This document shows, piece by piece, positions 30,940-63,196 of a DNA stretch of 64,000 nt. Below the pieces are notes generated by a model. That model ran no database searches and was not told the DNA's origin. It was given only the letters and a program-made list of their open reading frames with translations. The DNA is from Artemia franciscana (taxonomy: Eukaryota > Arthropoda > Branchiopoda > Anostraca > Artemiidae). A program made the position numbers and the translations under genes. Positions within the stretch are counted from its first letter, which is position 1. Each line of letters opens with the position of its first letter. The stretch spans positions 23,617,637 through 23,681,636 of the forward strand of contig NC_088883.1 in the NCBI RefSeq assembly GCF_032884065.1. The letters run 5' to 3'.

Positions 30940-31362
30940 TCACTTTTGGACTAAGAGACAGGGTGCATAGCCTGTAAATGAGTTTCTGCCTGGTTTACGT
31001 AGGGAGATATGTTTCCAGAATAACTTAGGGTTTTCCTTGACATTTTTGGCCAGATGTTCTTCGTAGTTTACAGTGAGTTTCCGCGTTTCTTTTCTGAGGA
31101 GATTCCTGGCGATTTTGTACTTCTCATATACTGTTGTTGTTTTTTGTTTCACAAACTTCTCCCAAAGTTTTTTCTTCCTATTGCATAGTTTCTTGATTTT
31201 TGGGGTGAGGAAAGGTAGAGTTTTTGGTTTCTTTTTCCATGTCACGCTGGTATGTTTGGCTAGGCTCTCTAGTAGGGTGTTTTTTAGGATTAGCCATGAA
31301 GCTTCCACGTCATCTGAGATCAGAATTTCCAGATTGGCATCCATCAGCTCTTCCACCATCAT
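30940..31362 (-). pseudogene. LINE EN-RT linker with RT deletion
   Basis: Encodes the helical, Lys-rich linker between endonuclease and RT (PFLTPKIKKLCNRKKKLWEK, NLLRKETRKLTVNYEEHLAK, NPKLFWKHISLRKPGRN). Immediately afterwards the sequence jumps to an RT segment preceding motif B (KLIYRLCTLSLSPKVISWIE in another frame). The RT fingers and motif A (roughly 150-200 residues) have been deleted. Confidence 0.75.
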
Positions 31363-40962: not shown

Positions 40963-41044
40963 TCTATATATATAAAAATAAGTTGTCTGTGGATGGATGG
41001 ATGGATGTGTCAGGTGACGTCACCTGAAAAAACTGGATCAGGTG

Positions 41045-41710: not shown

Positions 41711-41749
41711 ACGACACTCAAAGAGAAAGCGACCAGGACAAAAGGAATG

Positions 41750-42460: not shown

Positions 42461-42839
42461 ATGGTCGATTAGCAATCACCATCAACAAAGCTCAAGGGCA
42501 ATCATTAGAATCATGAGGTATAGATCTGAATACAGATTGTTTTCCCATGGACCATTATATGTTGCATGTTCAAGAGTCGGTAAACCTGACAATCTATTTA
42601 TATGCAAAGACAATGGGACAGCAAAGAATGTTGTATATTCGCAAGTTTTACGTAGTTAAAACCATATATATATATCTATCTATATTCACAGGTGGGACAT
42701 AGGGACACAACTACAATGGCGCGTAACTATTATGGCGCGTAACGACTTACGCGCGCGGGGGGGCTTGGGGGGGGCGCGAAGCGCCCCCACCAACTAGGTG
42801 TTGGGGTGGCGCGAAGCGCCACCCCAACAGCTAGTAATC

Positions 42840-43260
42840 TATAAATTATTTTTATAAATCGAACAGTATTTAGACATAAAAAGACATCATCAACATATTC
42901 GATAATACCATGATTATTTTTTTTTATCCTTCCTCCAATGAAATATTGAATCGTTATAATGAGAACAGGAATAAGGCTTAGGGAGTTTTGCCCGTAAACA
43001 AAAGGAGCTGCTGATCAGCTACGAGAATCAATTTTGTTATTTGATCTTCAACAAAAGGCAAATTGAAATTGAGCGCTGCTTTGAGCCACTTAGCATGATA
43101 TTTGAATGAACGAGACTTGCATCAATTCGAATTATATTACTCATAGTTTCAGTTCTGTCCGTTCATTAAGCCTAATATTTTATATTGTTTAGATTTTTCC
43201 CCAAAGAATTATCTAAGCTTGCTCAAAAAAGGAGACACTCTTACAGCTGGATGGTATTAG
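42840..43260 (-). pseudogene. Possible Penelope-like RT fragment
   Basis: Minus-strand reading across frames gives WLKAALNFNLPFVEDQITKL, QLLLFTGK, then VYGQNSLSLIPVLIITIQYF and finally EYVDDVFLC. The FxxxGxxYxQ...SPLxPxL...YVDD order is that of Penelope-like element RTs, with several substitutions and at least two shifts. No GIY-YIG part is seen. Lies between two plus-strand Helitrons. Confidence 0.45.
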
Positions 43261-43299
43261 TCTATGAGAATCTTCTTATAAAAAAATTCGGCGGACAAA

Positions 43300-43939
43300 C
43301 CATAAAAAGACAAACCGGGGGGCACAGGGGGATATATAAATGACGACGGGGACACAGGGAATGTTTGATTAGTAATCACCATCAACAAAGCTCAAGGGCA
43401 ATCATTAGAATCATGAGGTATAACTAAAAAAAAAGTGAAAAACAAAAAAAAAAGACCAATTTAAAAACGAATGTATATACAGACCGGGACAATGGGACAC
43501 AAATGACGACCGGGACACCGGGACACAGGGAATATAAATGACGATCGAGACACTCAAAGATAAATTACAGACTGGGACCCCGGGACACAAGTGACGACCA
43601 GGACACAGGGAATATAAATGACGATATAAATGACGACGGCGACACAGGGAATGTTCGATTAGCAATCACCATAACCAAAGCTCAAGGGCAATCATTAGAA
43701 TCATGAGGTATAGATCTGAATACGGATTGTTTTTCCCATGGACATATGTTATATATATATATATATATGTTGTTATATATATGTTATATATTATAATAAC
43801 ATATATAACATATTATGTTATATATTATATGTTGCATGTTCAAGAGTCGGTAAACCTGACAATCTATTTATATGCACAGACAATGGGACAGCAAAGAATG
43901 CTGTATATTCGCAAGTTTTACGTAGTTAATAACATATAA

Positions 43940-44036
<97 letters not shown>

Positions 44037-44158
44037 TCACAAGTGGGACACAGGGACACAACTACAATGGTGCGTAACTAATATGGCGCGTACCGACTTA
44101 CTAGCGCGGGGGGCTTGGAAGGGGGCGCGAAGCGCCCCCCCCCCACCCCAAAAGCTAG
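43300..44158 (+). mobile_element. Helitron remnant with intact 3' end
   Basis: CCGGGACAC minisatellite (43310-43640), two copies of the helicase-end remnant (AAAGCTCAAGGGCAATCATT at about 43388 and 43677), LRS-type C-terminal coding remnant (43840-43929), a (TA)n tract (43944-44033), then the CACAGGGACACAACTACAAT and GCGCGTAAC region. It ends with a GC-rich hairpin (44113-44130 region) and CTAG at 44155-44158. The 5' end is missing. The next Helitron starts three bases later. Confidence 0.7.
43944..44033. repeat. (TA)n microsatellite inside Helitron
   Basis: Pure TA repeat at the same internal position as in other copies, after the helicase-end remnant. Confidence 0.95.
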
Positions 44159-44338
44159 TCTTCTATATATATATATAAATAAGTTGTCTGTCTGTCTGTC
44201 TGTCTGTCGAGTGACGTCATTATAAGGATTTAGCTGTATGTCGTCATGAAGTTAGTTGTCGTCATGTTTGTTATGACGATGCTTAGTATATGACGTCATT
44301 ATTAGTATCAAAGAGAAATTTTTAATTGTAAGAAGATC

Positions 44339-44872
44339 GTGGACAGAAAAATTTTTAATTGTAAAATGACTGAAGAACCTACAATGGCAACAGCCGAGAA
44401 AGCTGCTCAAAGAGTCTATGTTAAAAAACTTGCGGCTGATAGAGAAAGTAAGAAAAGAAAGCGTGCCGAGGAATCCCAAGAACAGCATAAAAACAGGCTT
44501 GCGGCTGATACAGAAAGTAAGAAAAGAAAGCGTGCCGAGGAATCACAAGAACAGAAAGAAAACAGGCTTGCGGCTGATAGAGAAAGTAAGAAAAGAAAGC
44601 GTGCCGAGGAACCACAACAACAGTGTGAAAACAGGCTTGCGGCTGATAGAGAAAGTAAGAAAAGAAAGTGTGCCGAGGAATCACAAGAACAGCAAGAAAA
44701 CAGGCTTGCGGCTGATAAAGAAAGTAAGAAAAGAAAGTGTGCCGAGGAATCACAAGAGCAACCTGAAAATTATCGCCTGGCATTCAGGTACAGCCCAGTC
44801 GATGATTATAGCTTGAGTAGATGTGTTCAAATTGGGACTATGTCTAAAAGTTTCCCTATTGCAAGGCCTTGA
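44339..44872 (+). pseudogene. Helitron protein N-terminus, frame 1
   Basis: Starts MDRKIFNCKMTEEPTMATAE. About five 69 bp (23-residue) repeats encode RLAADRESKKRKRAEE-type units (44430-44765), then NYRLAFRYSPVDDYSLSRCV. At about 44850 one base is missing relative to the copy at 25.4 kb (MSKICPYCK there, MSKSFPIARP here). The frame is thrown off at the start of the Cys-rich motif and ends at 44872. The opposite-strand frames in this repeat are shadows. Confidence 0.85.
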
Positions 44873-45740
44873 AATTCAATGGTGAAACAATGGGAATGTG
44901 TTGCGCCTCAGGAAAAGTTAAACTTCCTCCACTGGGTGCACCACCGGAGCCACTGCAGACTTTGCTTACTGGAACTACGTCAGAATCTAAGCGTTTTTTA
45001 TCACAGATCAGAAAATATAACTCATGTTTCCAAATGACGTCGTTTGGTGCCCAAATCGAAAATTCAGATCAATTTATGCCTATTTTCAAAGTAAAAGGGC
45101 AAATTTATCATAGAGCCGGGTCCCTTCTACCATTCTCAGAGGAGAATCATAAATTTTTACAACTGTACTTCATCAGTGATAGAAATTCTGAATTGAATGC
45201 ACGTTGCGAAATTTCTCCCGACGTTGAAAGGACAATCGTTTCCCAATTGCAACACCTTTTCAACGAAAATAATAATTTAGTGCGTCTGTTCAAAACAGCC
45301 ATCGATTTGATGCCTACTGATACGCATAAAATTGTTATTTCCGCTGACAAAACACCTCCTGGCCAACATGTGCGTAGATACAATGCTCCAACTATCGACG
45401 AAGTGGCAATCGTTATGGTCGGTGATCAGCTTTTACATCGATATATTATTCTTCATAAGCGAAACGCTCAGTTGGTAAGAATTGCTGAAACTCATCGATG
45501 CTACGATGCCCTACCATATCCTATCATTTTTTGGAATGGAGCCGACGGCTATCACTTTAATATTAAATTGATAAATCCAGCCACTAACAAAGAAATGAAT
45601 AAGAAATGCAGCGCAATGCATTATTATTCCTATAGACTAATGATTCGGTAGGATGAAGACAATTATATATTAAAATGCCGTCAATTGTTTCACCAATACA
45701 TCGTTGATATGTATGCAAAAATTGAATCAGAACATACTAT
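44869..45740 (+). pseudogene. Helitron protein, continuation after frameshift
   Basis: Continues the N-terminal domain (KFNGETMGMCCASGKVKLP, then KRFLSQIRKYNSCFQMTSFG). It crosses the point where the minus-strand copy has a stop: here HVRRYNAPTIDEVAIVMVG is open. It then runs through the start of the Rep region (YDALPYPIIFWNGADGYHF) to MIR and TAG at 45649-45651; the other copy has CAG. Beyond the stop, homology continues to about 45735 (NYILKCRQLFHQYIVDMYAK) and ends in minisatellite. The HUH motif is absent. Useful as a reference for the ancestral reading frame. Confidence 0.85.
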
Positions 45741-46128
45741 CTAACAAATGACGACCGGGCCACATGGAGTATAAATGACGACCACGACATAAGTAAAAAA
45801 AAACTAAAAAAAAGGGTAAAAACTACAAAAAAAAACTAAAAAGAAAAAAAAACTATAAAAGCTAAAAAACTAAAAAAGAAAAAAAAGAAAAAACGAAAAA
45901 AATGAAAAATAAAGGAGAAAAAAAAAACTAAAAAAAATTAAAATAAAAAAAAAACTAAAAACAAAAAAGAAAAAAAAAACTAAAAAAAACTAAAAGTAAA
46001 AACCAAAAAAAAACTAAAAAGAAAAAAAGGGGAAAAATACAAAAATTTATAACCTGACAATCTATTTATATGCACAGACAATGGGACAGCGAAGAAGGTT
46101 GTATATTCGCAAGTTTTACGTAGTTAAA

Positions 46129-46648
<520 letters not shown>

Positions 46649-46790
46649 GTGGGACATAGGAACACAACTACAATGGCGCGTAACTAATTTGGCGCATAAC
46701 GACTTACGCGCGCGGGGGGCTTGGGGGGGGCGCGAAGCACCCCCAACAACTAGATGTTGGGGTGGCGTGAAGCGCCACCCCAACAGCTAA

Positions 46791-47060
46791 TATATATAAA
46801 AATAAGTTGTCTGTGTGTGTGTGTCGAGTGACGACATTTTTGTGTGTCGACTGACGTCATGTTTGTCGACTGACGTCATTATAAGGATTGACCTGTATGA
46901 GTCATGAAGTTGTTTGTCAACTGACGTCATGTTTGTCAACTGATGAAATTACATACCGGGACAAAGGGACACAGGGAATATAAATGACGACCGGGACACT
47001 CAAAAAGAAATTACAAACTGGGTTACCGGGACACAAATGACGACAAGGATACAGGGAATA
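46791..47060 (+). mobile_element. Helitron 5' fragment
   Basis: Begins immediately after the CTAA end of the previous Helitron with TATATATAAAAATAAGTTGT (initial TC altered). Three TGACGTCA octamers follow (46853, 46871, 46923), and CCGGGACAC minisatellite to about 47060, where the element is cut off. Third head-to-tail junction in this cluster. Confidence 0.75.
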
Positions 47061-47208
47061 TGTGGGTTTCTTGAGCTGATGACTGATTAACCGTCCTCTC
47101 TTGTCAGAGGATCCTTACACCCTAGGACGTCTTTCTTTGAGTTGATTCACTTACACTGCTGTTGTAAGTTCCAATCTTCTTGAAACATAATTAATGACGA
47201 TTGATCAA
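47061..47208. other. Unassigned spacer
   Basis: No recognisable feature between the truncated Helitron and the dispersed repeat. Confidence 0.4.
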
Positions 47209-48400
47209 ACAGTTCGTGTTAACGAACTGTAGTAAGGAGCGACCCGGCTCAATAGTAACATAAATTCTAAAAAATGAAATTTTGATACCAATAGCTACAT
47301 CAAAAGAATTCCATTTTAATGCTGATTTTAAATATATAAGTTTCACCAAGTTTAGTCTTACCCATCAAAAGTTAAGAGCCTGAAAAATTTGCCTTATTTA
47401 AGAAAATGGGGGGAAACACCCCCTAAAAGTCAAAGAATCTTAACGAAAATCACAATATCAGATTCAGCGTATCAGAGAACCCTATTGAAGAAGTTTCAAG
47501 TTCCTATCTACAAAAATGTGGAATTTTGTATTTTTTGCCAGAAGGCAGTTCACGGATGCGTGTTTTTTTTTCAGGGGTCATCTGATCGACCCAGTGGTCC
47601 TAGAATGTTCCAAGAGGGCTCATTCTAACGGAAATCAAAAGTTCTAGTGTCCTTTTTAAGTGAGCAAAAAAATTGGAGGGCACGTAGTTCCCAAAGTCAA
47701 CGGATCAAAATTCTGAGATAGCCATTTGATTCAACGTAGTCGAAAAACCTTATAACTATGTCTTTGGGGACTGCTTACTCCGCCACAGTCACCGTGGGAG
47801 TGGCTACAAGTTACAAACCTTGACCAGTGCTTACATATAGTAATGGTTATTGGGTAGTGTACAGACGTTTTCAGGGGGATTTTTTGGTTGGGGAAGGGTT
47901 GAGAAGAGGGGATACATCGGGGGAACTTTCCATCGAGGAATTGGTCATGGAGGAAGAAAATTTCCATGAAAGGAGCGCAGGATTTTCTAGCATTATTTTA
48001 AAAAAAAACAATGAAAAAATAAATATGAAACAGTTTTTTTTCAACTGGAAGTAAGGAGCAGCATTAAAACTTCAAACGAACAGAAATTATTACGTATATG
48101 AGGGGCTCACCTCCTCCTAATACTTCGCTCTTTACGCTAAAGTATTTTTAGTAATTTCAACTATTTATTCATTTAACAGAAATTACTTCGTATATGAAAG
48201 GGGCTGCTTCCTCATCAACGCCCCGCTTTTTACGCTAAAGTTTTTTACTGTTTTAAAAAGTAGAGTTGAGAGAAAGAGTCTAACTTTAGCGTAAAGAGCG
48301 GGGCGTTGATGAGGCAGCACCTTTCATATACGAAGTAATTTCTGATCGTTTTAAATTTTAATGTCACTCCTTACTCTCAGTTAAAAAAAACCTGTTTTTT
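47209..48400 (+). mobile_element. Dispersed repeat with terminal hairpin, second copy
   Basis: Starts with the hairpin ACAGTTCGT-GTTA-ACGAACTGT (47209-47230) followed by AGTAAGGAGCGACCCGGCTC. It matches the element at 34376-36023 in reverse orientation over AATGCTGATTTTAAATATAT, AAACACCCCCTAAAAGTC and AGAGGGCTCATTCTAACGG. It ends with GTAAGGAGCAGCATTAAAAC and foldback modules. No coding capacity seen. Confidence 0.7.
48170..48350. repeat. Foldback module, second copy
   Basis: ACAGAAATTACTTCGTATATG, AAAGGGGCTGC, CGCCCCGCTTTTTACGCTAAAG pair with CTTTAGCGTAAAGAGCGGGGCG, GCAGCACCTTT, CATATACGAAGTAATTTCTG. Same module as 34415-34600; arms ~70 bp. Confidence 0.88.
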
Positions 48401-48631
48401 TTATTTAATCCCAAAAAACGTCACCAAGCCCCGCTCTTATTATCATTAATCATGATTAGTCAACGTGGAACGCATCCCGTAACGGTTTTCCCGCTTTTTT
48501 CCTTACAATAATCACTATGCCCTTTGTTCTGAGCAATCCATAGTTCCTTTAGTGTGAATTTAGGTTTCTGGTAAATTTGTTATGTTTTTTACCTAATCCT
48601 AAACGCAGCGTTTGTTGCACTTTTGATTTTT
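48401..48631. other. No gene recognised
   Basis: Short unassigned stretch; GATTAGTCAACGTGGAACGC near 48455 loosely resembles GATTAGTCCAACGTAGCG at 2716. Confidence 0.4.
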
Positions 48632-49245
48632 GGTAAAATTCTAGTTGATTGACTTTTGGCTATCTCAGAAAGGGGTTAAGTTAGGAAAATCAAACTTTCA
48701 GGGACGGGTCTAAAGGCTAAAGTTTGTCACGAGAAGGTATTTTTGAGTAACCACCTTCACTTCTCCCTCCAGAGGGCCCTGAAATTCACCTCCATGACAG
48801 GTCTATTGAAATTTTGACAAAACAACGTTTTACCTTAATTTTCAGTTTTCAGATGCCTTTTCTCTGCCTTTAGTTCTGAAAATGCAATTCCTGTTATTTG
48901 AAGAGAAGTCTGAGCCATATCAATGTTTTTTTTTCCAAAATTTAGGAAATGTATTCGCATATCTTTAAAACCCTATAAAATGGAATTGAGCAAAGTTATG
49001 AAGCTGAAAACAATTTTGTTGTACTTCAATTAAGCAGAAGATCAATTTTGCAAGGTTTCACTTTTATAACACAAATATTTTTAAAGGTCAGGGCCCTCTA
49101 GAGGGGGAAGGAGTGGAGGTAGTTGCTTGGAAATACCTTCCCAGAATATACTTTATTCTGTAGAGTCATCCCTGAAAGTTTCATTTTCCTAACCTAAACC
49201 TTTCCCAAGATAGCAAGAAGTCAATTAACTAGAATTTTACCTTTT
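48632..49245. mobile_element. Non-autonomous DNA element with ~115 bp TIRs, copy 2
   Basis: About 85-90% like 39301-39940 throughout. Terminus TGGTAAAATTCTAGTTGATT at the left and AATTAACTAGAATTTTACC at the right, with the same internal landmarks (ACAGGTCTATTGAAATTTTG, CTTCAATTAAGCA, CAGGGCCCTCTAGAGGG). No coding frame. No clear target duplication visible by eye. Confidence 0.75.
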
Positions 49246-52138
49246 AGTGCTGAGATATTGTAGCATTAGGCCTATTTTTTTTCAAAAATGATGGAAAAGA
49301 TGTTATTAAGAAAATGCAGTATTATTTTGTGGAGAGCAAGGGATAACTCATATTTTAATTGAAAATTTATCAGTTCTAAGAGTTCAAAAAGTGATTCAAT
49401 TTGAATTTGTGATAGAAGCAGTTACTATATTCTTAAAGAAGATAAAAAAGACAAGTCTTATGTTCACTTTATTGGCAAGTCAGTTATACCCTATGAACTC
49501 AGAATGTTTTGAAAATGTGACATTTTTAAGAGCTCCAAAAGTGCTTAAATTTGAATTTATGGTAGAAGCAATTATTATATTCATAAAGAGCATAATAAAA
49601 GGCATTGAATAGTATGTTTATTGATAAGTCAGTTATATGAACTGCTGTAATTTTACTGCTCACTTTGTGTAGATTTAGGCTATCTATATTATGGCACCAA
49701 AATTTAAGGCTGAGGTTTTTTATCCATAAATTTTTTGTAGTTTTAAAGAATACATGGTAAAGATCTATATTAGGGGGTATTGAGAAAGAAATAGCCTAGG
49801 TTAAGACAACAATCCTTACCTCATAAAATGCAGAACAGTTGTAGCCACCACACTTTGACTGCAGCTCAATTTTTTTATCCCCAATCCCCTGAATATGCTG
49901 TTATATAACCTGTATTTTATATTTTTCATGCCCTCTGGCAATACATCTCTTTTGGTTTAACATATGTACCCATAAAATGAATCAGTTGTGACAAAACAAG
50001 CGTTATGGGTGACAGAATCCATAATTTGGAATGTATCTTCATATTAGGGGGGTTGGGGGTAAACTAAGCTATACTGGTGCTGTATTCTTAATGTGTTAGC
50101 CACAACTGTTCTGTATTTTATGAAGTAAGAATTTATTTCCTAACATGTTTCCTTCTTAGTAGCCCTTCCTGTAAACCTTCACTGAATGTATTAAATGTCA
50201 AATTAGGTTACACTAGTCTTTTTAATTAAAGTCTTACAAGTCTAGACATTTGTGAAATTTATTTAGATTTAGTTGTAGACCATTAGGCCTAGTAGCCCAT
50301 TTCTTTTTATTTTATGCTTATTTATTAAATATAACAGTTCAGTCACAACAAATGTAAAAGGGAAATAGCCTAGCATACTTCTTATGGGTATCCATGAACT
50401 GAATTTTGGTAAATATATCACTGTTCATATTATTGACTTACCAATAAAGTGAAAATAGCCTATCATTCAATGCCTTTTTTATGCTCTTTACAAATATAAT
50501 AATTGCTTCTTTTGCAAATAGAATTTGCACCTAACCTAACATTATTATAAATAGTTTTGGCTCTAAGAAAATATAGCATTATTTTGTCAAAAATGACCAA
50601 GAAAGCAGCACTAAGAAAATGTAGTATCATTTTGTTGAAAATAACAGATAAGTCATACATTAATTGAAAGTTTGTCATTTTGAAGAGCTCAAAAATTGCT
50701 AGAATTTTAATTTGCAATAGAAGCAATTATTATATTTGTAAAGAGCACTAAAAAGGCACCAAGTGCTATGTTCACTTTATTAGTAAGACAATAGGCTAAT
50801 ATCAACTGATATATTTGCCATTTTTTTGGGGGGGGGGGGGTTGGCTTACCTGGTCTAATCTGCACTTCTGATGCTGTATAATAGAAATATCAAAACATTA
50901 GTATAAAAATTGAAGGTAGCTTCATTCAGCCGGGGGGGGGGGTATAGAACCCCCTCCTCCCTCCATATAGGTGCTCATGCTATTTCTATAAGTAAACCTA
51001 CAAGTGTAAGTTATGTCACAATTCACAAAATTCATGCTCACAAAATCCACGCAATTTTAGGAAGAGAGCAAGAATTTATATTCAATGCCTTAGCATACTA
51101 AAAAATTATTAATTTTGTAAATCTAGGGGTGACAGTTGCTGTCAAGTTTAAACTAAGCAACTAAATCATAGATACATGCAATCTAAGGCAAGTGTTGAAA
51201 AAAAAATTGTCTTAGATCAGTCAGCTAAACCTAACTAGCCAAATCCCTAAAGTTCTGAATGGAGTCTTAGGCTGTATTTGGTACTAGTAGGGTGTCATTT
51301 TACTAGAGTAGCAGATATCTCATTTGGATAAAGTATCAATGGGAGAATTTAATGGTATTGCTATTTGTTTAATAGTGTTCCCTTCAGAAGATAATTAACT
51401 ATTACCAATTAAATAACACTCTTGTCTTTGCCCTCTTCTGAATGAAATGCTATAATATCAACATTCCCGTTTTGTAATATGTAGAAAAACGTATTTTGTA
51501 AAATTACTGGTCTGACTACACTTTGTTTTTTGTTTGACTGAGACTAATCCAAAGTTAAATTTTGCAGTTCTTCTAGGACAAACCCAATACTCATGGGGAG
51601 TGACAAATCTGAGAAAATATTATTGTTAAAATGTATCTTATAAATATGGACATTTGGTTCCTTATGTGGATGTGATAAAGATGGTTTTGTGTAGTTGAGA
51701 TTGGATGATGGTCATTACAGGGCTATGTAGGTTTGGCTGGCTACAATCTATGAAAACTTCTTTTAACATTTAAACTTAAACAAAAGCCACCCTTAATTCC
51801 ATCCTATTTTAAGTGTAATTATTCTGCTTCACAACCCTGACCTGACACAAACACTGAAATGTATCCATGATAAAGTATGGCTATAATTTAAAAACATGGT
51901 TCAAACTTTGAGATCCCATGTATGAAATTAGATAGCATTTTCTAAGATTATGCTCAATCTTTAAGTGTGTGCCGGTGATTAGGCTTAACTGTTAAGATAA
52001 TTTAGACAAAATTCAATGGTTAAATAATGCACTTTGTTCAAGGCATAACAGATATCTGATAGTGATTCAACTGTTGAAGTGATCATTAGCTTTCCAAATA
52101 ATGAATATTTTACCCATTTCATTTATTGATTTTGTTTC
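49246..52138. repeat. Dispersed diverged repeats; no gene recognised
   Basis: A ~110 bp repeat occurs at 49385-49515 and 49530-49635 (plus), 50405-50525 (complement) and 50690-50800 (plus), with landmarks GAAGCAATTATTATATTTGT, AAAGAGCA and AAAAGGCA. A piece also lies at 26500-26540. G-runs occur near 50828 and 50932. Remaining sequence to 52138 is AT-rich. Frames 49391-49612, 50463-50726 and 50910-51101 are repeat or chance. Confidence 0.55.
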
Positions 52139-52186
52139 AGAGCGACCTTGTCGCTCTGAAGTGCGAATTAAGGTAATTAAGGTAAG
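52139..52186 (+). repeat. Hairpin plus LINE-type 3' tail
   Basis: CAGAGCGAC-CTT-GTCGCTCTG (about 52139-52159) is a perfect 9 bp stem. AAGTGCGAATTAAGGTAATT and AAGGTAA follow, the same ending as at 37889-37925. Probably a very short 5'-truncated retroposed tail whose 3' end folds. Confidence 0.6.
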
Positions 52187-53001
52187 GTTTTAAAAATCAG
52201 TTTTGTTAATTACAAAAGATAATTTAAACAATTAATTATGAAGGATAATCAATCGTATCATGGATTTAAATTGTAACTTGTTAAATATCAAAATATATTT
52301 TATGCCAAAGAATCTTACTCCATTTTGAGGGACTATGGGGTATTATAGTTTTTTATAGGACATGATTGTCTCTTACTAGGTTGCTAGCTGTTGCTACAAC
52401 CCTGGTTAAGTTAAGCTGCATACATTTAATTAGCAAGGGGGGGGGGATTTTATTTCAATTAATCATTTGTCAAATTAATGAAGATATATATGTTTTTTTC
52501 TTAGTTCTGCTAGTGTTTCAAATATAAATTATGCAAGGAAAAGACAATTAGCTTAGAAAATTGCACAAAAATACTATATGAAAAGAGATAATCTTGGTCG
52601 TAGGTCTATCAAAGATACCCAAGAATTAGATGTGTTGTTTCTTTCCTAAGAATCAAGTGGTAATTTAAACAAATGATTTGTGAAGGATATTCAATCTTTT
52701 CATGAATCTAAATTGTAACTTCTTAAAAACGAAGATGTATTCTATGTCACTCACTAGCTAAGAAAATGATACGTTGATAGAAAAATTATTCAAAAAATTT
52801 TAAACTCGCAATTTTTATAAAACTAATAATTTAAAGTTTTATTATTTATAAACTTTAATAAATTAACTAATAAACTAATAGATGATAATTCAACAACCAC
52901 TGAAATCGTCAGGACAGTTTTTATAAACAAGCTCATTCTTGATGTGATTTATGCAAATATAAAAAAATTGCTTTTTGTAGTTTTTTTTTTTTTTTATATA
53001 G
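52187..53001. other. Upstream region of the cysteine-rich gene
   Basis: AT-rich, no protein frame. A T-rich tract ending in ATATAG at 52996-53001 looks like a splice acceptor just before the ATG at 53004, so a non-coding first exon may lie upstream. I cannot place it. Confidence 0.45.
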
Positions 53002-53003: not shown

Positions 53004-53175
53004 ATGGCCGATTCAAAAAGAGGTCAATGTGGCAAAGCATCTGCTCAAGCACCAGAGAAAGCTGTGGGCGAAGTAAAAATGAAGGATAAAAAGTCAGAAG
53101 ATTTTCAGACTAGTCAGTCTCTAGATGAAGACTATTTCAGTATTATGTCTCTGAGTTCATCAGAAACAGATGAAG
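53004..53175 (+). CDS. Cysteine-rich small protein, coding exon 1
   Basis: Unrecognised gene. ATG at 53004 in the context ATAGATATGG, followed by 57 codons plus one base. The segment is hydrophilic and starts MADSKRGQCGK, with a Lys-rich part (EVKMKDKKSEDF) and an acidic/Ser part (SLDEDYF, SLSSSETDE). No signal peptide is visible, so a cytosolic or nuclear product is expected. A strong GC-type donor (GAAG|GCAAGT) ends it at 53175 in phase 1. With that donor, exon 2 joins to recreate a GAA codon in the open frame. The alternative GT two codons later would put exon 2 out of frame. The next in-frame stop, if unspliced, comes shortly after at 53187-53189. Confidence 0.7.
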
Positions 53176-53865
53176 GCAAGTTATTTTAACTGCAATATAC
53201 CTGCACACAGGAGTAAGGGATAGTGAAATGGAGTGTATTGATTTAACAATCTAATGGTTACTTAAGTTTCCTTAGTCTAAATTTCTTTTCTTAAATTTTT
53301 CCTAAAGTGGTAAGCATCTTTATGTTCAAAATACAAGCCTGGGATTTTATTATTCAATATAAACAGAATTCACAATAGCAGTAATTCAGGCAAAGGTAGG
53401 CCTACTTTAGGCAGGATTTGAGTTTTCCTAAGTATACATATTCTGCACCTTTCGATAAATTTTCCTGGCAGTACTTCTCTCTATTGATATGATGACTTAA
53501 TATTTATTCAATGCTGATATAACAGAACTCCAGTCAAGACAGGTCATTCTTTACAAACCACGCCACTTTCTCTAATTTTAAAACACTCTTTCTATCTATT
53601 AATTCACTAAAACCAATGGAAATAACAAATCAGAAGAAATAATGAACTTTTGGTAATTGCACAGCAATCCCTCTACTGCTTAATTTGTTCATTCATTGAT
53701 GCATTCTAGAGCTTTTTTGCCAGTTCCTTTCAGCTTAACACGAGACAAGACACAGAGAAGTGACAAAATAGATGGGAAATATATAATTTGGGCTATATAT
53801 TTCCAAATTAGGAGGCTTGGGGGTAAACTATTTGGACAGTTGGAAGTTAGAAAACAATTGTTATT

Positions 53866-54030
53866 ACAGGGTGCGCATAATAATTGTGCCTAACACATTA
53901 GGCATGCAAACCACTATACTTCACCCCCACCCCCTAATTTGCAAATATAGCCCAAATTTGTTTCAAAAATAGGTCATTTCATATTTTTGGTATATTTCAT
54001 TAAAATTGAGCATCAGAGAACCATAATAGA
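53866..54030. repeat. Dispersed repeat shared with 60380-60520
   Basis: Shared words: ATTAGGCATGCAAACC / ATTAAGCATGCGGACC, CACTATACTT, TATAGCCCAAATTTGTTTC, and TTTCATTA near the end. In the second copy a hAT end (60362) abuts its left side. Confidence 0.65.
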
Positions 54031-55409
54031 AGAATGTTAGATAGGGGGTATATCATAAAAGTACCAAACATTCTTTTATATTTCAAAGAAAGCTGTTGAG
54101 CTAAATGAACTCATAGGAATAAATTCAAATATAAATATATTATTTTGAAAACCCTTCCATAAAAACTTTATATGCCCCAAGGCATAGCTTACAGTACCTC
54201 TACCTGGGCTCTAGGGGGTTTTATTAGCCCTGGAATTTTTTGTCATTTCATCTTTGGACTATGTCTAACAAAATGGCTATCTGAAACTTTATCAGAAGCA
54301 TTTGGGTGAAAAGGGGCAGGGTAGCTAGTTACCCTCTAATCACTTTTGACTCTTAAAAACTGTAATAGAAATTCCAATTTATAATCTAATGATCCCTTCT
54401 AAAGTTTCTGCTACTATCCCTTCCCTATGAAGTGCCTCGGGCAAAAGCAAATAATAAAACAATGAAGCCTTATGGTCTTTACTATAGACAATGCTATAGA
54501 GTTGTCTGTTTAAAAACCCTAGGCTTTTCTCCAGCAGCAGTTCTTTTCCTGGGCAGAAATGAGGGAGGGGCAAATGTCCCAAGTTCTTCTAAAGTCTAAC
54601 ATTAAAGTTTATTTTACATTCTTATTGTATACCTACCCCCTCCCCCCCCCCAGGTTATGAGGCCTAAAACCACTACTGCTTTCCTATGTTGGAAATTTCA
54701 TATTTAATTTATCTTATAATTTACAATAAAAGAGCCAAATTCCATTGCCCAAGATCTCAAAACATTTTCTAAACCTTTTGCTTCTGTCTTATTCAAGTGT
54801 CAAATAACAATTACCACATTATAACTCTTTATAAAAAAAAAATGTCAAATACTATCACCCAGAGAACCTAGTCCCTCCCTCCTGTAACTTGATATAATGA
54901 CTCTTTGTGAAAGTACAATCACTAGTACAGCCTAAGAGTTGACATGAAACTACACTGCTTTTGTGTATGTCCAGGCTATCAGCATTTTAAAAACCTAAGT
55001 TACACTACTTTTTGAAACTGCTATTTAATGAAGAAATGGATAAAATTCATTGTATTAGAGGTAAACTAACTTAATATTTAGTCTTATGAATTGATAATTT
55101 AGATATATCTGTATTTACCTTTCAAGTTGGGAGCTATGGGTTCTGGGTATTAAAGTATTTGTAAATTGGTTGCTTTTGGTGCTAATGGATGCTAGATTTA
55201 AAATATTGTTGGTGGGCAAAATCACTCAAGTTAAAAAGATTTCCTCCAAGCAGGGTCGCTATAGGTAGTTGGGCCAATGCATTACTAATTCAATGCAAAG
55301 TTATTATTAACCTAACACATTGCAGAAAAATTAGCCTAATCATAGTTGTAGCAACAGCTGCAACCTAGGTCCAAAGCAACCTCCAATAAATGCAACACAA
55401 ATTATCACA

Positions 55410-55615
55410 TATTTAGGGGGTTGCCCCCTCCTCAATACCTTACTCTTGATGCTAATGTACTTCAGAACTTAAAAAAAAACTTCTTATTCTAATTAAATTA
55501 CTGTTTAGTTGCAGAAGTTGTTCTTAAGGAATCGGAAAGCTCAACTTTAATGTAAAGACCAAGGTATTGAGGAGGAGAAAACCCCTCTCATACATAAATA
55601 TTTACTGTTTATTTA
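55410..55615. repeat. Diverged foldback module, third copy
   Basis: GGGGTTGCCCCCTCCTCAATACC...TACTCTTGATGCTAA on the left and TTAATGTAAAGACCAAGG...TATTGAGGAGGAGAAAACCCC on the right, arms about 50 bp. Same architecture as 34415-34600 and 48170-48350 but much more diverged. Followed by TTTAAGTTTCATTTTGCACT as in the others. Confidence 0.65.
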
Positions 55616-57976
55616 AGTTTCATTTTGCACTTCGTTTTAGCTGAAAAACACTTCTTTTTTTTATCTAATTTAATATCGTTTTTCAACTGGTGCCAGAAAT
55701 CCAGCTCCTCTTCATGAAAAATTCTCCTCACTCACAGACAATTCTTAAGATTTAAGTTCCAAAACTCTTCCCAGACAATCCCATCATTGCTGAAATCTCC
55801 CAGGAAATGTTGTCTGAAAAATTATCTTAAGCATATTTTTATTTGAAAATGACTAATTTATGAGTTTAAACTACTTTTTTATTTAAAACTACTAAAATCA
55901 TGTTCGAAATCTACCCTGGATTCAGATAGATTTCTAGGAATCCCTTTAACTCCAGTGGAAAGTTGCTCCAGCAGAGAATTCCACTATTGAAAACTGTCCC
56001 CCCCCCCCCTTAAAAAACCCCAAGACAATCCCATCCCTGTCAAAAACTTCCCCTGGAACATTTGCACATATTAAATTTAGTTAGCAAAGACATATAAAAA
56101 GAGTTTTGTATAGGAATTTTGGCAAATTCCCTAAGCCTAAATTACCCATAAAAAGTCGAGGTTTAATTTGCTAATGGGCTGGGGCAACTTTTAGGTTTAT
56201 GGTAGTTTATGGCTCATTTTTCACTTTACTAAAATATTACAAAAATGGGGAAGGGGTCAATTTTTATAAATCTTTTGGATAGCTAGATTACTGGTTTTTT
56301 TTTCTTAAAAAAATTCAGTAGAATTGCATTCTCTATTTTTTAGATTGGGTATCCTTACCTTCCCTCCAAATGAAATGTATTCTTTCCATTGAAGAATGCA
56401 TTTTTAAGAACTATTTTTACTGAAAATCAAAAAGATAGCTGTTCTCCCTGTGATTGTTGATAAATATATTTTATCATATATGGATTTTTACATTCTTTTT
56501 ATTATAGCCTGGCTAGTTAATTCAATTCAACTTTCATCTTCAGGGACTTGTACTATTTACAGTTTACAGGACAGATGTATACAATTTTACTGTCTGTAAG
56601 GTGGACATAGCCAGCCACCCACTTGATTCACCCTAGTGGGAGTAATTTGTTGTCATGAATTCAAAATACCATCTCAGTTTTGACTAACAATTGAAAAGAA
56701 AAAATTGTATTTAATATTCTTGAATTTTAAAATAAATATCAAACAATACAAGTTATATTTTTAGAATCAGTAAACAACCAGCTTTCTGTTAATATGTGAA
56801 AAAACCTGAAACACTGAAAAGATGTATACATCAAAATAGGATAATTGGTATTTCTGAAGAGGTTCTTAGATGTAAGTCAATGAACTAATGATTTCAAGTG
56901 CTTAATCTTGAATAATTTTGGCAATAACTATATTGATGCATAGCTTAGATTCTTAGCTACTAATTGATATATACAATTCTTCTCAATACCTCTTTGGTAT
57001 CAAGATGTGAGGGTTTTAGTCTTACATAATTTTGTTCAATCAGATACTGATTTTTTACCCTACCCAAGTAGTGCTATTTTTTACTTTTTCATCAAAGTAG
57101 TCCTATTTTAACAATTTTTTATCAAAATAGTTATTTTGAATACTTTCTGTGAAAGTAGTGGTTTTTAACACTTTTTGTTAAAAGTAGTAGACTATGTTTT
57201 CAGTAATTTTGTTAGAAGTGTTGACTTTTTAAAATTTAACATTCAAAAAATAAAATTACTCATTAGAAATAACTTTTAAGTTGAAATGGAGGACAAAATA
57301 AGGAATCTAATGATATCAAAATGCTTTGACCCCAATGGCAACTGCCAATGGTCAAACATAGTCGCCATTGACAACAGGGGCAGATCTAGAGAAAAATCTT
57401 GGGGGGGGGCTAGAACCAAGGGTGCCAATATAATTCAAGAGTAATGATAGAGGGGGGGGGTATAGATAACGCTTTCATCTGACCAGTTTGTTTGTGTGAA
57501 TCTGGTTGGTGCTGATGTAAAATGACAAAGAAACCTCTTTGAAAGCCAATAATGTTTTCCTATAACAGTAAAATGCATATTTACAGCAGACACGAGCAGA
57601 TTCTTTGATGTTTATGGCTTCTTTGAGACTTTCTGAATGAGCAGACCAGACTATTTTTTTTTTCTTTAGAATTGGATAAAAAAAAAAACAATTAATGGGA
57701 AAACCTATAATTTCTAGCTATGGTAGACAAATTAATATACAATGATATGGTCATTATCTATTTATCTACCATAATTTTGGGGTAATAATAAACAAAATAT
57801 TCGTTGGCTTGTTTGTTTGCACAACCTAATTTAGTTTTGGTAAAAATTCTAATTTTTTTGGGAAGTAGGGCTGAAAAGTTTATAAATAATATCGTGAAAT
57901 ATATGTTGGGTAAATGTGTTTATGATTTGTTTATTTGGCATTAGTTGTTTTGTTATTGCTATTACTTTACTTTTAG

Positions 57977-58095
57977 AACCAGCACCGGCAATGTCAATGA
58001 AAAACCAGCTCCCGGAAAGACCAGATCTCATCGAGTCGGTCCACAAGAAGGGCTACTCTGCTGAGGTGGTCCCCAAGAAGGGCTGCTGTGCTGAG
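57977..58095 (+). CDS. Cysteine-rich small protein, coding exon 2
   Basis: 119 nt, acceptor TTACTTTTAG before 57977 and donor GAG|GTAATT after 58095; enters in phase 1, leaves in phase 0. Encodes EPAPAMSMKNQLPERPDLIE then SVHKKGYSAEVVPKKGCCAE. The last part is an internal duplication: KKGYSAEVV and KKGCCAE derive from a ~27 bp DNA repeat (AAGAAGGGCTACTCTGCTGA and AAGAAGGGCTGCTGTGCTGA). In the second copy Tyr-Ser has become Cys-Cys. So the start of the cysteine cluster arises within a local duplication. Function unknown. Confidence 0.72.
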
Positions 58096-58199
58096 GTAAT
58101 TGTTCTATATCTTTCAGTGAAAACTCTTATTTGGACAAGAAGGGGGATTTTTCTTGTATCAAAACGATTGGGGCGAGTTGGAGGGGGGTAATGATCACT

Positions 58200-58890
58200 A
58201 GGGACAACAGAAGTAGTGCGAAGGTTATGCACGGCATCGTGGGGCAAAACTCAAGGAAATTTGTGCTCTCCTTCTCTTAAGGGTGGCTAGATTTGCTGTT
58301 CGAAGAAGGGAAATGTAAGGCACTTTACCCTCATTGAAGATAATTCTTAGGCACCTTTTTTGAACTGCCTCTATGTCCGACAATTCATTGAAGATGCCAG
58401 GATGCCAAACAGGACAAGCGTATTCGAGGGTAGTAGAAAAATCCTCAAACGATGTGATTTAGGACATTTAAATTTGTTAAGGAGTTTTAGGAAAGAAAAT
58501 GCAGTATCTGTACTTTTAAGAAATCATTAACGTGGCATTCCCATTTTACGTCACTTGAGATGGTAATACCCAGTAATGTCATAGTATTAACAGACATTTA
58601 AGGCGGGATAGGACAGGAGAAAGAAGGGGGAGTTCTTAGGAAACTAATTGTTAAAGCTGTTGACTTTAAAGGGTTGACTCTCATATCACTAGCATCAACT
58701 TCATCTGATATTGAATCCAAGATGTCCATTGGGTTACTTTTTAGATTTTTGAAAGATGTTTCTAAGACAGTTAAAACGTCATCGAATTTCTATCTATCCG
58801 GGAAAACGACACCAAGACTGTTAATTATGGTAAGAAATCAACTTTGGCCTAAGAGGGTTCCCTGGGGTACACCATTATAAATTTGGAGGA
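58200..58890 (-). pseudogene. Non-LTR RT fragment
   Basis: The minus strand reads NGVPQGTLLG (motif B), then with a shift KFDDVLTVLE (motif C area), SDEVDASDMRVNPLKST, and further on LEYACPVWHPGIFNELSDIE, VQKRCLRIIFNE and LLRTANLATLKRRR. This gives palm and thumb of an RT whose motif order fits CR1/Jockey-like elements. Stops and frameshifts present. Confidence 0.75.
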
Positions 58891-60362
58891 GATCAGAGTA
58901 TCTCCACATCCAATGAGATGGATGTGTCTTGTTTTTTATTGCATAGCAGATCAAATCTTGGTGTAATGTTTGAAACTGCTGGACGTAAGACCTCTTCAAC
59001 ATTTTTTATCGCTGAACGATATTGGGATTTAATGTGATTTAAAGCTGAGAAAGTAACTTCACATGAATATGTGGTGTTGAATGGCAGAAGTACAGTTAAC
59101 ACCATATCGGCGATTTTGGGAAATTAAGATCTAGTGCCAATCCAGAATTCAATCAAGGGTTTTTTTATAAATTGTAGTTTTAAGTTTGAGTCACGCGAAA
59201 GCTCAGCAAATTCCTCTTGAGCTTTAAGTGGCAGATGATCAATCTCACTTAAGTCAATCCAAAACAACTTTTGAGTCCAAACTATTTTTGTAAATCAATA
59301 TTTAATATAAGATATGTCCGGAACTGTATTTCTAGCGCTTTTAAGGGATCTACAATGGTTTTTGCAATAAAAGTTTTACGATGAATTTTCTCAATTACAA
59401 AATTGTCAACACTGGAAAACATTTCGAACGAATTTTTTCGACCCAACTTTTCCAAATGCTGATCTTTTTAATAAAACTTTCAATTTTATCGTTTGAAGTA
59501 CATATATCGCAATTTTTTCCTTGAAGAGACAAGTTAAGATCGTATAACTTCGCAAAAATATCTGACAAATAACACAGCTTGGATAGCCACAAGTCATTTT
59601 AAAAAAACCCAGCAAATTCACATTTTCGTTCAATTAAAAATATTTCGATCTCGTCCTTTAATAACAATAATCTTTTTAAACTTTGACCTCTTGACAACTA
59701 TCTTACTTATGCATGTAATAACAAAGTTGTGTAGTTGGAATCCGTATCCTTACAGAGATTTGAAAATAAACGACTGTTAAGGGCATGGCTCTTACTAAAA
59801 TTTATGACCTTAACAGCATTCTGAAGCACATCGTTCAATTCTGGTGCTATCAATCAATTATGAAGCACCCAAACGATTTTTATATGCCGGGACTGTAAGG
59901 TCCCGTCGGTCACGAAAGGGTTAAACTGACTAATTCGGAATAACATGCACTTCGTTCACAATCATACAATGGCTCAATGAAAATAACACGAAATGTTTAC
60001 ATAGTTTCTTCGAAATAACACTTAGAAATTTTGTTGATAATATTTATTAGGATTATTTCGGTTTTAATAGATTGACAAAAATAAATCTACATTTTTTATA
60101 AGTTTCTATAACATCTTTTAATTCATAGTAAGTTTATACAAGATATTATAATGATCGGAATAGAAATGCTGGAATAAACAGTCTTTCCGAACCAGAAGAT
60201 TTTATTATATATTTATCTACGATGATTGTTATTTTTCTTTATAACAATAATTTTACAAGTTAAAAAACATTTTTTGTTAAATTGTATTTTTATCACTTGC
60301 GACCCCATAATTTTGCTACGCGACCTCAAATGGGGTCGCGACCCATAGTTTAATAAGCCCTG
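58890..60362 (-). pseudogene. hAT transposase fragment (ZBED5-like)
   Basis: Minus strand, broken into frames: APELNDVLQNAVKVINFSKS, ALNSRLFSNLCKD, YTTLLLHA followed by a degenerate WLSRG (59650-59850), WLSKLCYLSDIFAKLYDLNL then SLQGKNCDICTSNDKIESF (59440-59592), and the C-terminal dimerisation end VLLPFNTTYSCEVTFSALNH, IKSQYR, PRFDLLCNKKQ (58893-59105). This is the order in hAT transposases related to the ZBED5/FAM200 group. The right edge is CAGGGCTTATTAAACTATGG (complement, ending at 60362) followed by a GTCGCGACCCC palindrome, a plausible terminal inverted repeat. The DDE catalytic region is mostly lost. Confidence 0.75.
60331..60362 (-). repeat. Probable hAT terminal inverted repeat
   Basis: On the minus strand, CAGGGCTTATTAAACTATGG then GTCGCGACCCCA. 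CAGGG-type ends and a nearby GGGGTCGCGACCC palindrome are common in hAT elements. ATGTAGAT next to it would be the target duplication; no second copy was found at the other end. Confidence 0.5.
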
Positions 60363-60379
60363 ATGTAGATCATGAATAG

Positions 60380-60520
60380 TTGTACCTAATATATTAAGCA
60401 TGCGGACCCACTATACTTTAATCCCCCCTAATATCCAAATATATAGCCCAAATTTGTTTCTAAAGTATCATATTTAAAACCTTACTTCGGTAAATTTCAT
60501 TAGGGTAAGCGTCAGATAAA
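60380..60520. repeat. Dispersed repeat, second copy (see 53866-54030)
   Basis: ATATTAAGCATGCGGACC, CACTATACTTTAATCCCCCC, ATATAGCCCAAATTTGTTTC match the copy in intron 1. Confidence 0.6.
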
Positions 60521-60600
60521 CAAATTAAAAAACAGCAGTTTCAAATCTAGGACAGGATTTTTATTTAGAAATTATTGATAAATATTTCTTTCCTTTGCAG

Positions 60601-60765
60601 TGTGGAGAATGTTGCGGCGGAGTTATCGGAGAGTGTGGCCGATGTTGTGAGAGGACTCTCAACGCTTGTGGGACATGCTGCCCAAATTGGAGTATGCGTG
60701 CACGGGTACAAACGGGTGAACTAGACGCGAAATTAGAGTTGGAAAAGTCCATGAATAAAAAGTAG
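60601..60765 (+). CDS. Cysteine-rich small protein, coding exon 3 and stop
   Basis: 165 nt to TAG at 60763-60765, acceptor TTTCCTTTGCAG, phase 0. Encodes CGECCGGVIGECGRCCERTL then NACGTCCPNW, with nine cysteines in 27 residues (CxxCC...CxxCC...CxxCC spacing), and a charged tail (QTGELDAKLELEKSMNKK) without cysteine. Whole protein: 151 residues with 12 cysteines, 11 of them in one block of about 30 residues. The regular CxxCC triplets suggest metal binding or lipid attachment (palmitoylation) rather than secreted disulfides, since no signal peptide is seen. I do not recognise the family. The opposite-strand frame 60561-60752 is a shadow. Confidence 0.72.
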   Translation, partial: CGECCGGVIGECGRCCERTLNACGTCCPNWSMRARVQTGELDAKLELEKSMNKK

Positions 60766-61135
60766 ATTTCGAGCTCGTTTTTATTGTCTGACAGGTTCTT
60801 AAAGACGGGGATTCAGTAAGCTCATGTTTTTGTTCCTCCTGAGAATCAAGAAAAAAAGTAACTGAAGCTTACCTTGCGGTCAAAGACATGATTTGAGGTA
60901 ATTCCGATTGACCTGGCTAATCCATTAGAAATTGCACAGTCCTCTGTGTTTGTACTTGAACTTGTACTAAATCCTGAGGTTGGCATATGCCAATAGCAAG
61001 AACTCGCCGTTGGATATTACTATGTAATTAATTGAGGCTGGGCTTTATTTACTAGTATTAGTAGGGAGTGGGGTGGAATGCCATGGTTAGGTATCCACTG
61101 GGTTTGTCAGGCTGTTACTATATGCTGGCCAGGAT
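60766..61135. other. Downstream of the cysteine-rich gene
   Basis: 3' UTR presumably starts here. No AATAAA within the first few hundred bases; candidates are at about 61873 and 62091-62103. No other feature. Confidence 0.4.
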
Positions 61136-61640
61136 TGATGACATTTTGATCATCATTTTTAGCTAAAACTGGTTGAGGGTAAGCACTTTGAAGAATTTCA
61201 CTTAAAAAAAGACAACTCACATTTTACTGATTACAAATTAGAATTTTCTGATGGTACATTTCTTAGCTGTTTGGTGACACTGCTGCACTGAAGAAAGTGA
61301 CTATTTGGTGATCATCGATGCTCTGTCTGAGTCAGACATAAACTAGCAATTAGTGCTGTTGCTAAGCAGCAATCAATGGCATTGATGACAATTGTGCATC
61401 ATTTTCACCTAAAGTTGTTGAGGATAAACACTTTGGAGAATATTAGATAGAAACGAATCACTCGCAATTAACTGGTTACAGATCCTAATTTGGATATAGC
61501 ATCCATTTTGCTGTTTGGTGATATTGCTGCACACAAGAAGGTGACTATTTGACGACTCCCAGTGCGTTGTCGGATAGACTGAGAGCACAACTTGACATTT
61601 CTTAAAACTAGCGATCAGCACTGTTGCTAAATGTTTTGTC
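61136..61640. repeat. Diverged tandem duplication, ~240 bp units
   Basis: Unit 1 (about 61136-61375) and unit 2 (about 61385-61640) share GATGACA...ATCATTTT...CTAAA...GGTTGAGG, AAGCACTTTGAAGAAT / AAACACTTTGGAGAAT, CTGTTTGGTGA, GCTGCACT / GCTGCACA and GTGACTATTTG. The minus frame 61409-61753 (114 aa) lies partly in unit 2 and has no family I recognise. Confidence 0.6.
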
Positions 61641-63196
61641 TCAGTATATTTGTTTGTAAAGATGGCTACTTTTACCTTGGAAAGCAGGATAATTAGAATA
61701 ATCACCTTTCGAATAAAAGGCCACACAAACACATTTTTACTTGCTTGAAACAACTGCAGACATCACTGAAAGTCACTAAATTCATTTAATCCTGTTAAGA
61801 CACTTCAAGCTGATTCTTCTAGGTCACTTGCACTGATAGTTCCATGCTGTAAATACATCTGAAATGGAAAATAAAATAATAATCCTCTCCCTGTAAACTA
61901 ACTTTTCTTTTCAGTCCTCAGATAAAGTTTTCTTAGAAATTAGAGCATGCGCTCTGTTTCTACTGATTAAATCGAAAATACTTGCTTGACAAGATTCGTT
62001 TCCAACACCTCTATGATTTAGACATAACAAATATTATAATGTCTGCTTATAAAATTTGTAATTTTGAATGATGTTTATCATATCACTCAAATAAAAGAAT
62101 AAACATAAGAGACAATTGGCTTTAAGTTAAAAGCGGATATCGTCTTATTTTCGAGTAAAATATATTAAGTGGAAATGTTGGTTTAAAAAAGGCTGAACTT
62201 TATTAAGCATAAATATTGCTTTTTAACGGACTAAACCTTATAGACCAAAATCGGATTAACGTAGAGTAAGCTTATTTCCCGGGAAATATTCAACTCTGCA
62301 TGGAAAAATTTTCTCCTCCCCCGCATAAAATTCCTCCATAGAAGGTCCCTCCCGAGTAAAATCTTTACTATCCTAGGGAGATTAACCCCCAGACGGCTCT
62401 ATCCTCCCTGCCAATTCCTCCTTTCTTGCGGACCTTTTCGCTTTGAATAAATATCCTTAGGACACTTTCAGTTGAAAAAATAAGTTATATATTTTATTTC
62501 TGATCGTTCTTTCAAGCTATGCCAAAAACCCCACACCCTAAAAGAAATTTTTCATAGGTCGTCCCCTCTCCCTCAACGAAAAGTCTTTCCTACTGAAAAT
62601 TTCCCCATGGAAAATTTATTCTGGTGATAATCTGCGCATGGAAAAATTCTCCTGCAGAATAATGATGTTTATCCTGCCGATTGTCCGAAAGGTGTATCTC
62701 AAAAATAGATTTGGGCTTGAAGTTGGAAGTTTCTGAGAATGCTTAAAGGAGAAAATGGATGGAACGAAGGGCTATGCATCCATGCTACTGCTGATACCAG
62801 TAGGAAGTTCACTTTTAATCATGGATCCCTAATCCTATCCAACAGTTGCAGTTCCGTTTTTGTTGTAGTTCTACTGACAGAAATTTTACTTCCCAATCCT
62901 TCTGTTTGAAGCTAGTGTTTCCACTTGGCATTGTACAGAAAGAAGTAGGCAGAAGTATGTAGATTGGAAGTAGAAACGAAATTCAAATATAAGTAGAAAA
63001 TAAGTAGTTTACGTATAATTTGTTTGAATATTTGAATAGGAAATTAGACTTTCCAAGGCTCATATAAGGCTCGGATAAACGACTTTCATTGCAAAACCAG
63101 CACAAAAATTGAAAGGGATAAAATCAGATGAAATTAGATCTACGTTGTATGGGCAACGTGAGGTGCTACGGCAACGTTTGTTCAGCTTCGCCAAGC

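What the first reader, a model, noticed from the sequence alone, without database searches (positions are those of the whole stretch)
53004..60765. Unrecognised three-exon gene for a CxxCC-repeat protein
Three short open segments each end at good splice signals with matching phases (1, then 0) and together give a 151-residue protein. The last exon has a striking CxxCC...CxxCC...CxxCC cluster. Only the splice join shows it; no single long frame does. Coding support: no stop in any exon, phase agreement at both junctions, and a repeat-poor coding sequence in repeat-rich surroundings. I recognise no family. The cysteine spacing suggests a metal-binding or palmitoylated protein (inference).
Basis: partly seen in the sequence, partly recalled or inferred. 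Interest (0 to 1): 0.75.

Follow-up and report, generated by a model that had tools for sequence, protein, structure and literature searches.

The report
Brine-shrimp genes with hypervariable exons

Summary
The host is Artemia franciscana. The locus belongs to a dispersed family. Against three relatives, DNA outside the exons is 1.5-2.3% diverged, but exon 2 differs by 17/119 (C18) and 11/89 plus a 30-base in-frame gap (C379), and exon 1 by 10/121 (C379) and 6/93 (C21inv). In these four tests no non-exon window reaches the exon value; a fifth, C21inv exon 2 (2/119), is not raised, nor is exon 3 in C109 and C5614 (2/164 each). Six of six exon-2 copies keep phase and frame; in C478 the flanks align at 91-93% but exon 2 does not. 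Exon-2 silent sites are raised too (dS about 0.2), so selection on new point mutations alone is not enough. Best reading: a real, undescribed, fast-diversifying gene family; the exon-confined process is unresolved. Closest known pattern: snake three-finger toxin genes. No RNA evidence; metal or lipid binding untested.

The parts
52981..53001 (+). T-tract and AG directly before the ATG: probable splice acceptor, so exon 1 may not be the first exon (inference)
   Evidence: kept in nine of nine ATG-bearing copies listed; two further copies (1B of C379 and C21inv) have the tract and AG but ATT in place of ATG
53004..53175 (+). exon 1, 57 codons + 1 base, donor AAG|GCAAGT (GC-AG intron)
   Evidence: relatives at 6 further places by exon alone and 10 further copies by exon plus flanks; divergence peak against C379 and C21inv
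53176..57976 (+). intron 1, about 1-2.5% diverged among window, C21inv, C379 and C18 where alignable
57977..58095 (+). exon 2, hypervariable, six copies seen, all open in the predicted frame
58096..60600 (+). intron 2, GT-AG; begins with a dispersed repeat at about 58100
60601..60765 (+). exon 3 with three CGxCC units of 11 residues and the stop codon
   Evidence: 99% copies in C109 and C5614; in C379 only its first 31 bases align, then a different open sequence to a stop

Best explanation
A protein-coding member of a small dispersed gene family of Artemia franciscana whose exons diversify while its introns stay alike. Shown: the exon model in sequence, the relatives, the open frames, the in-frame indels, and divergence peaks confined to exons with exon-2 silent sites raised as well. 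Inferred: the copies (paralogues or unmerged alleles) exchange DNA by recombination or gene conversion, which keeps introns young and similar, while diversifying or balancing selection keeps old and different exon types, as in MHC genes (comparison recalled). The product would be a small charged protein, in this copy with a cysteine-rich tail, in some molecular arms race (reproductive, immune or intragenomic; inferred from the pattern alone).
For: Non-exon divergence 1.53% (C21inv), 1.80% (C379), 2.32% (C18) against exon 2 14.3% (C18) and 12.4% plus a 30-base gap (C379), exon 1 8.3% plus 51 gap bases (C379) and 6.5% (C21inv); 0 of 4,646-8,770 non-exon windows reach these four values. Frames and phases kept in 6 of 6 exon-2 copies; C379 gives a full three-exon reading frame of 107 residues. 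Exon types are not proportional to intron age: window, C379 and C18 are mutually 2.2-2.55% apart in intron 1 and 14.3-14.6% in exon 2, window and C21inv 1.12% and 1.7%. Exon-2 dS 0.23-0.24 is about ten times the intron value, as expected if exon types are older than their flanks.
Against: No expression evidence. C21inv exon 2 and exon 3 in C109/C5614 are not raised. Several copies are partial or broken: C21inv exon 1 has two stops and lacks its 3' part; no exon 1 or exon 3 was found in the 20 kb of C18. Edges of the divergent stretch are sharp on the donor side (no change for 93 and 127 bases), sharper than random conversion tracts would readily give. dN/dS in exon 2 is below 1. Few sites: 5 and 4 synonymous changes.
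Confidence: 0.5

Rival explanations
1. Exon-targeted change: the exons are rewritten by a process that meets only exons, such as conversion templated by spliced cDNA of diverged relatives, or focused error-prone repair; the introns are simply recent duplicates.
For: Changes stop at the splice sites; silent sites of exon 2 are raised with the others; the same contrast at an older level (C18b: exon 42/113, flanks 13/152 and 10/174) and in C478, where exon 2 cannot be aligned between 91-93% flanks. In C18, 12 of 17 exon changes lie within 3 bases of another, against 24 of 122 outside, and transversions are in excess (12 of 17 against 49 of 122, p 0.02).
Against: Spectrum not unusual in C379 (11 of 21 transversions against 71 of 162) or C21inv (5 of 8 against 49 of 103), and clustering weaker there (8 of 21 against 33 of 162; 4 of 8 against 19 of 103). 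C21inv exon 2 is hardly changed.
Confidence: 0.15
2. Ordinary positive selection on new mutations, including multi-base mutations, after recent segmental duplication.
For: Exon 1 window against C379A: 12 nonsynonymous, 2 synonymous (dN 0.138, dS 0.086); C379B against C4b dN 0.231, dS 0.100. Several synonymous changes in exon 2 of C18 lie next to nonsynonymous ones (substitution list), as multi-base mutations would give.
Against: Exon-2 dS is 0.23 and 0.24 where introns differ by about 2%, and 1.4-1.5 in C18b where flanks differ by 6-9%; dN/dS there is below 1. Three other exon-1 pairs have dN/dS 0.56-0.82.
Confidence: 0.2
3. Not a gene: chance open segments or dead repeats in a transposon-rich region.
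For: No RNA evidence; partial and broken copies; GC first donor; no family match; exon-1 relatives on C4, C12 and C2 lie in larger stretches shared between those places at 97-99%.
Against: The exon coordinates were fixed before the comparison and are the top divergence windows in C379 and C18 (exon 2) and in C21inv (exon 1), second in C379 (exon 1); 6 of 6 exon-2 copies keep phase and frame; gaps of 30 and 51 bases keep the frame.
Confidence: 0.07

Closest known systems
Snake three-finger toxin genes (ASSET, accelerated segment switch in exons; PMC2711939, passages seen)
   Same: The paper says that introns of these genes are over 85% similar where present and that profound differences are restricted to exons
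   Different: Unrelated, secreted toxins with a known fold; here a crustacean, no signal peptide seen, no known fold
MHC-like genes with old exon types in homogenised introns (recalled, no call)
   Same: Exons older and more diverse than introns, silent sites raised too
   Different: No immunoglobulin or MHC domain; dN/dS in exon 2 below 1; allelism not shown
Pfam PF03940 MSSP, male-specific sperm protein
   Same: Exon 3 gives a sub-threshold match: E 0.15, 12.2 bits
   Different: Below the cut-off of 21.2 bits; repeats there are CGP-like (recalled); most likely shared composition
Dscam hypervariable gene of arthropods (PMC3364881, search listing and abstract start only)
   Same: Variable exons in an arthropod
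   Different: Variation there is by alternative exons of one gene; here by copies at several places, with only a few doubled exons

Membership tests
Protein-coding gene | Open frame and phase kept in relatives | tested here: met
   exon 2 in 6 of 6 copies; C379 has all three exons in frame; C21inv exon 1 is broken
Protein-coding gene | Spliced transcript | not testable with these tools
   no RNA data held
Exon-confined hypervariable family (ASSET-like pattern) | Introns alike, differences restricted to exons | tested here: met
   for exon 2 in C18, C379, C478, C18b and exon 1 in C379, C21inv; not for exon 2 in C21inv or exon 3 in C109 and C5614
Snake three-finger toxin | Three-finger fold, signal peptide, four conserved disulphides | tested here: not met
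MSSP (PF03940) | Score above the gathering cut-off | tested here: not met
   12.2 bits against 21.2
Metal-binding or palmitoylated cysteine protein | Bound metal or lipid; cysteines kept across relatives | tested here: inconclusive
   C109 and C5614 keep all nine cysteines of the three units; C379 does not; binding not testable
MHC-like balanced polymorphism | Different exon types as alleles of one locus | not testable with these tools
   no population data

The most novel reading that the evidence does not exclude
An animal multigene family in which a process that recognises exons (for example conversion by spliced cDNA) rewrites coding sequence at silent and amino-acid-changing sites alike while leaving introns untouched: an exon-specific generator of diversity outside venom and immune receptors.
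Probability: 0.15. Interest if true: 0.92.

Novelty: new variant of a known kind. Interest (0 to 1): 0.62.

Why it matters
Coding sequence about six times as diverged as its own introns, with silent sites raised too, is unusual; the case I found in print is venom genes. Here it appears in a free-living crustacean, in a family with no Pfam match, with several exon types in kept frames. It offers a test of whether such patterns come from old variants kept by selection or from a process that acts on exons alone.

Tried and rejected
Rejected: membership of a known Pfam or PDB family (nothing above cut-off; the single PDB row has E 1.5). Rejected as sole cause: positive selection on new point mutations (exon-2 dS about ten times the intron value). 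Rejected: a GT donor just after exon 1 (wrong phase). Tried: a coding exon with a signal peptide in window 41001-53000 with a good phase-1 donor: 12 rows, 5 in or beside AT-repeat frames, 6 inside the ORF at 44306-44872, one of 12 residues at 41005; none credible; weaker donors and non-coding leaders were not scored. Tried: further exons as divergence peaks upstream against C21inv: peaks at 48523 and 46734 (8 in 60 bases each) without a clear exon shape. Tried: exons 2 and 3 by tblastn in the C4, C12 and C2 copies (E up to 0.05): none in the roughly 17-28 kb held downstream of each exon 1. Discarded: the first dN/dS script cut three exons wrongly; one search replaces it. In one search the cut of exon 1B failed; one search has it right. 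My note gives 108 residues for C379; one search shows 107. Papers: searches listed no Artemia family of this kind; I saw listings only, and 10 of 66 papers. Papers seen: PMC11492255 abstract and section 2.1; PMC10827361 abstract; PMC2711939 and PMC3847720 passages.
Full report
What was checked. The three exons are present at the stated coordinates, with lengths 172, 119 and 165 and phases 1 and 0, and give 151 residues without an internal stop. The first donor is AAG|GCAAGT, so intron 1 is of the GC-AG type; intron 2 is GT-AG. In nine of nine ATG-bearing exon-1 copies listed a T-tract and AG end two bases before the ATG, which looks like an acceptor, so an upstream (perhaps non-coding) exon is likely (inference). 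A simple scan for a signal-peptide exon in window 41001-53000 found nothing credible.

Where it comes from. The genome has 1,270,528,402 bases in 6,468 contigs and its contig C2 has 67,337,973 bases. The Artemia franciscana assembly of Jo et al. 2024 (PMC11492255, section 2.1) has a longest scaffold of 67,337,973 bases, 1,270,721,445 bases in all and 6,486 scaffolds. I take this as the source; the small difference in totals is not explained.

Relatives. DNA searches with each exon found exon 1 at 7 places, exon 2 at 4 and exon 3 at 3, the window included each time. A search with exon 1 and its flanks gave 17 rows: 11 copies (window; two on C21 inverted, about 233 kb away; two on C379; four on C4; one each on C2 and C12) and 6 short pieces of flank. 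A search around exon 2 gave 41 rows: window, C18, C379, C21inv, two pieces of C478, and 35 other copies of a dispersed repeat that starts at about 58100; only 40 of 884 candidates were scored, so the count is a lower bound. The genome search with the protein did not complete.

Exons vary, introns much less. Outside the exons the aligned DNA differs by 1.53% (C21inv, 103 of 6,732), 1.80% (C379, 162 of 9,012), 2.32% (C18, 122 of 5,259), 0.90% (C109, 8 of 888) and 1.01% (C5614, 9 of 888). Exon 2 differs by 17 of 119 in C18 (Fisher p 7e-9) and by 11 of 89 plus 30 gap bases in C379 (p 9e-7; another aligner gives 13 of 89); exon 1 by 10 of 121 plus 51 gap bases in C379 (p 9e-5) and by 6 of 93 in C21inv (p 0.004). 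Not raised: exon 2 in C21inv (2 of 119), exon 3 in C109 and C5614 (2 of 164 each). These tests ignore clustering. Against all non-exon windows of the exon's length, 0 reach the exon value in four of five tests (of 6,417, 8,661, 8,770 and 4,646 windows); for C21inv exon 2, 3,055 of 6,359 do. The windows overlap, so these are ranks, not p-values. In a blind 119-base scan exon 2 is the top window in C379 and C18, and exon 1 is top in C21inv and second in C379.

Edges. In C18 and C379 the changes in exon 2 begin 10 bases past its first base; the nearest change upstream lies 13 bases before the exon, and downstream the first lies 93 (C18) or 127 (C379) bases past its end. In C478 the flanks are 93.0% (157 columns) and 91.2% (397 columns) alike and exon 2 cannot be aligned; it has 107 bases, keeps the phase, has no stop in the frame and ends WYER, as the second exon-2 copy of C18 (C18b) ends CYER. 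C18b differs from the window by 42 of 113 in the exon and by 13 of 152 and 10 of 174 in the flanks.

Silent sites. Window against C18: 5 synonymous in 25.7 sites, 12 nonsynonymous in 91.3 (dS 0.23, dN 0.14). Against C379, at the gap positions with fewest mismatches: 4 in 19.3 and 7 in 67.7 (dS 0.24, dN 0.11). Against C21inv: 1 and 1. C18b against window and C18: dS 1.47 and 1.39, dN 0.88 and 0.89. Exon 1, window against C379A: 2 and 12 (dS 0.086, dN 0.138); C379B against C4b: 3 and 24 (0.100, 0.231); the other three pairs have dN/dS 0.56-0.82. So exon 2 is under some constraint, yet its silent sites are about ten times as diverged as introns; exon 1 alone would fit positive selection. Either exon types are older than their flanks, or something changes exons in particular.

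Age pattern. Over 2.7 kb of intron 1, window, C379 and C18 are 2.20-2.55% apart and their exons 2 14.3-14.6%; window and C21inv are 1.12% and 1.7% apart. In C18 changes are clustered (12 of 17 in exons within 3 bases of another, 24 of 122 outside) and rich in transversions (12 of 17 against 49 of 122, p 0.02); in C379 and C21inv the spectrum does not differ (p about 0.5) and clustering is weaker.

Exon 3. In C379 intron 2 is conserved up to the exon, apart from an insertion of about 65 bases, but only the exon's first 31 bases align; it then runs on in another sequence to a stop. C109 and C5614 match 59713-60764 at 99% and then go into other sequence at the stop codon. No copy seen shares the DNA directly after exon 3 with the window, so exon 3 lacks the two-sided control that exons 1 and 2 have.

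Product. The joined protein has a charged N-terminal half, a 10-residue repeat in exon 2 (read by eye; C379 lacks one unit) and three CGxCC units of 11 residues in exon 3. No Pfam family reaches its cut-off; the best for exon 3, MSSP, has E 0.15. Metal binding or palmitoylation remains a guess, and a role in an arms race is inferred from the evolutionary pattern only.

Known comparisons. The ASSET paper (PMC2711939, passages) says that introns of the snake toxin genes compared are over 85% similar where present and that profound differences are restricted to exons. That is the same pattern in an unrelated family. The MHC comparison is recalled. Searches listed no crustacean case except Dscam, where variation is by alternative exons.

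Limits. Copies on small contigs (C379, C478, C5614) may be alleles that the assembly did not merge.

Noticed in passing
window 58100-58400: A dispersed repeat begins 4-5 bases inside intron 2, right at the exon-2 donor; 35 other copies were scored of 884 candidates. It looks like the end of a LINE on the minus strand (my reading, not tested).
   Followed up: partly
L018 (C379) and L016 (C21inv): Both copies carry a second exon 1 (1B) about 2 kb downstream with ATT in place of ATG; in C379 it is open and phase-symmetrical, so it could serve as an internal alternative exon.
   Followed up: partly
L019/L020 (C18): A second, much diverged exon 2 (C18b) lies about 3.5 kb upstream of exon 2.
   Followed up: partly
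L024, L025, L043-L050 (C4, C12, C2): An exon-1 subfamily (MAGPKRGRGGKASAQAP...) sits in stretches shared between C4 places and with C12 at 95-99% over kilobases; C2 shares only about 0.5 kb at 91%; no hypervariable exon there and no exon 2 or 3 found.
   Followed up: partly
window about 59849-61849: C18 lacks this 2 kb, which holds exon 3; the junction shares TGCT, so a deletion in C18 is likely.
   Followed up: partly
window 60745-60765: AATAAA overlaps the end of exon 3 just before the stop codon, so a poly(A) site could lie directly after it (by eye).
   Followed up: no
window 21664-24858 (-): Long Helitron-type open frame: Helitron_like_N and PIF1 helicase; similar pieces at 44306-45651 (+).
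   Followed up: no
window 3972-5438 (+) and 31359-32987 (-): LINE-type open frames: reverse transcriptase, and endonuclease domains.
   Followed up: no
window 48523-48582: Local divergence peak against C21inv (8 changes in 60 bases; mean 2%), not explained.
   Followed up: no
window 6499-6950 and 46018-46790: Long AT-rich dinucleotide arrays open in several frames (YIYIYI).
   Followed up: no
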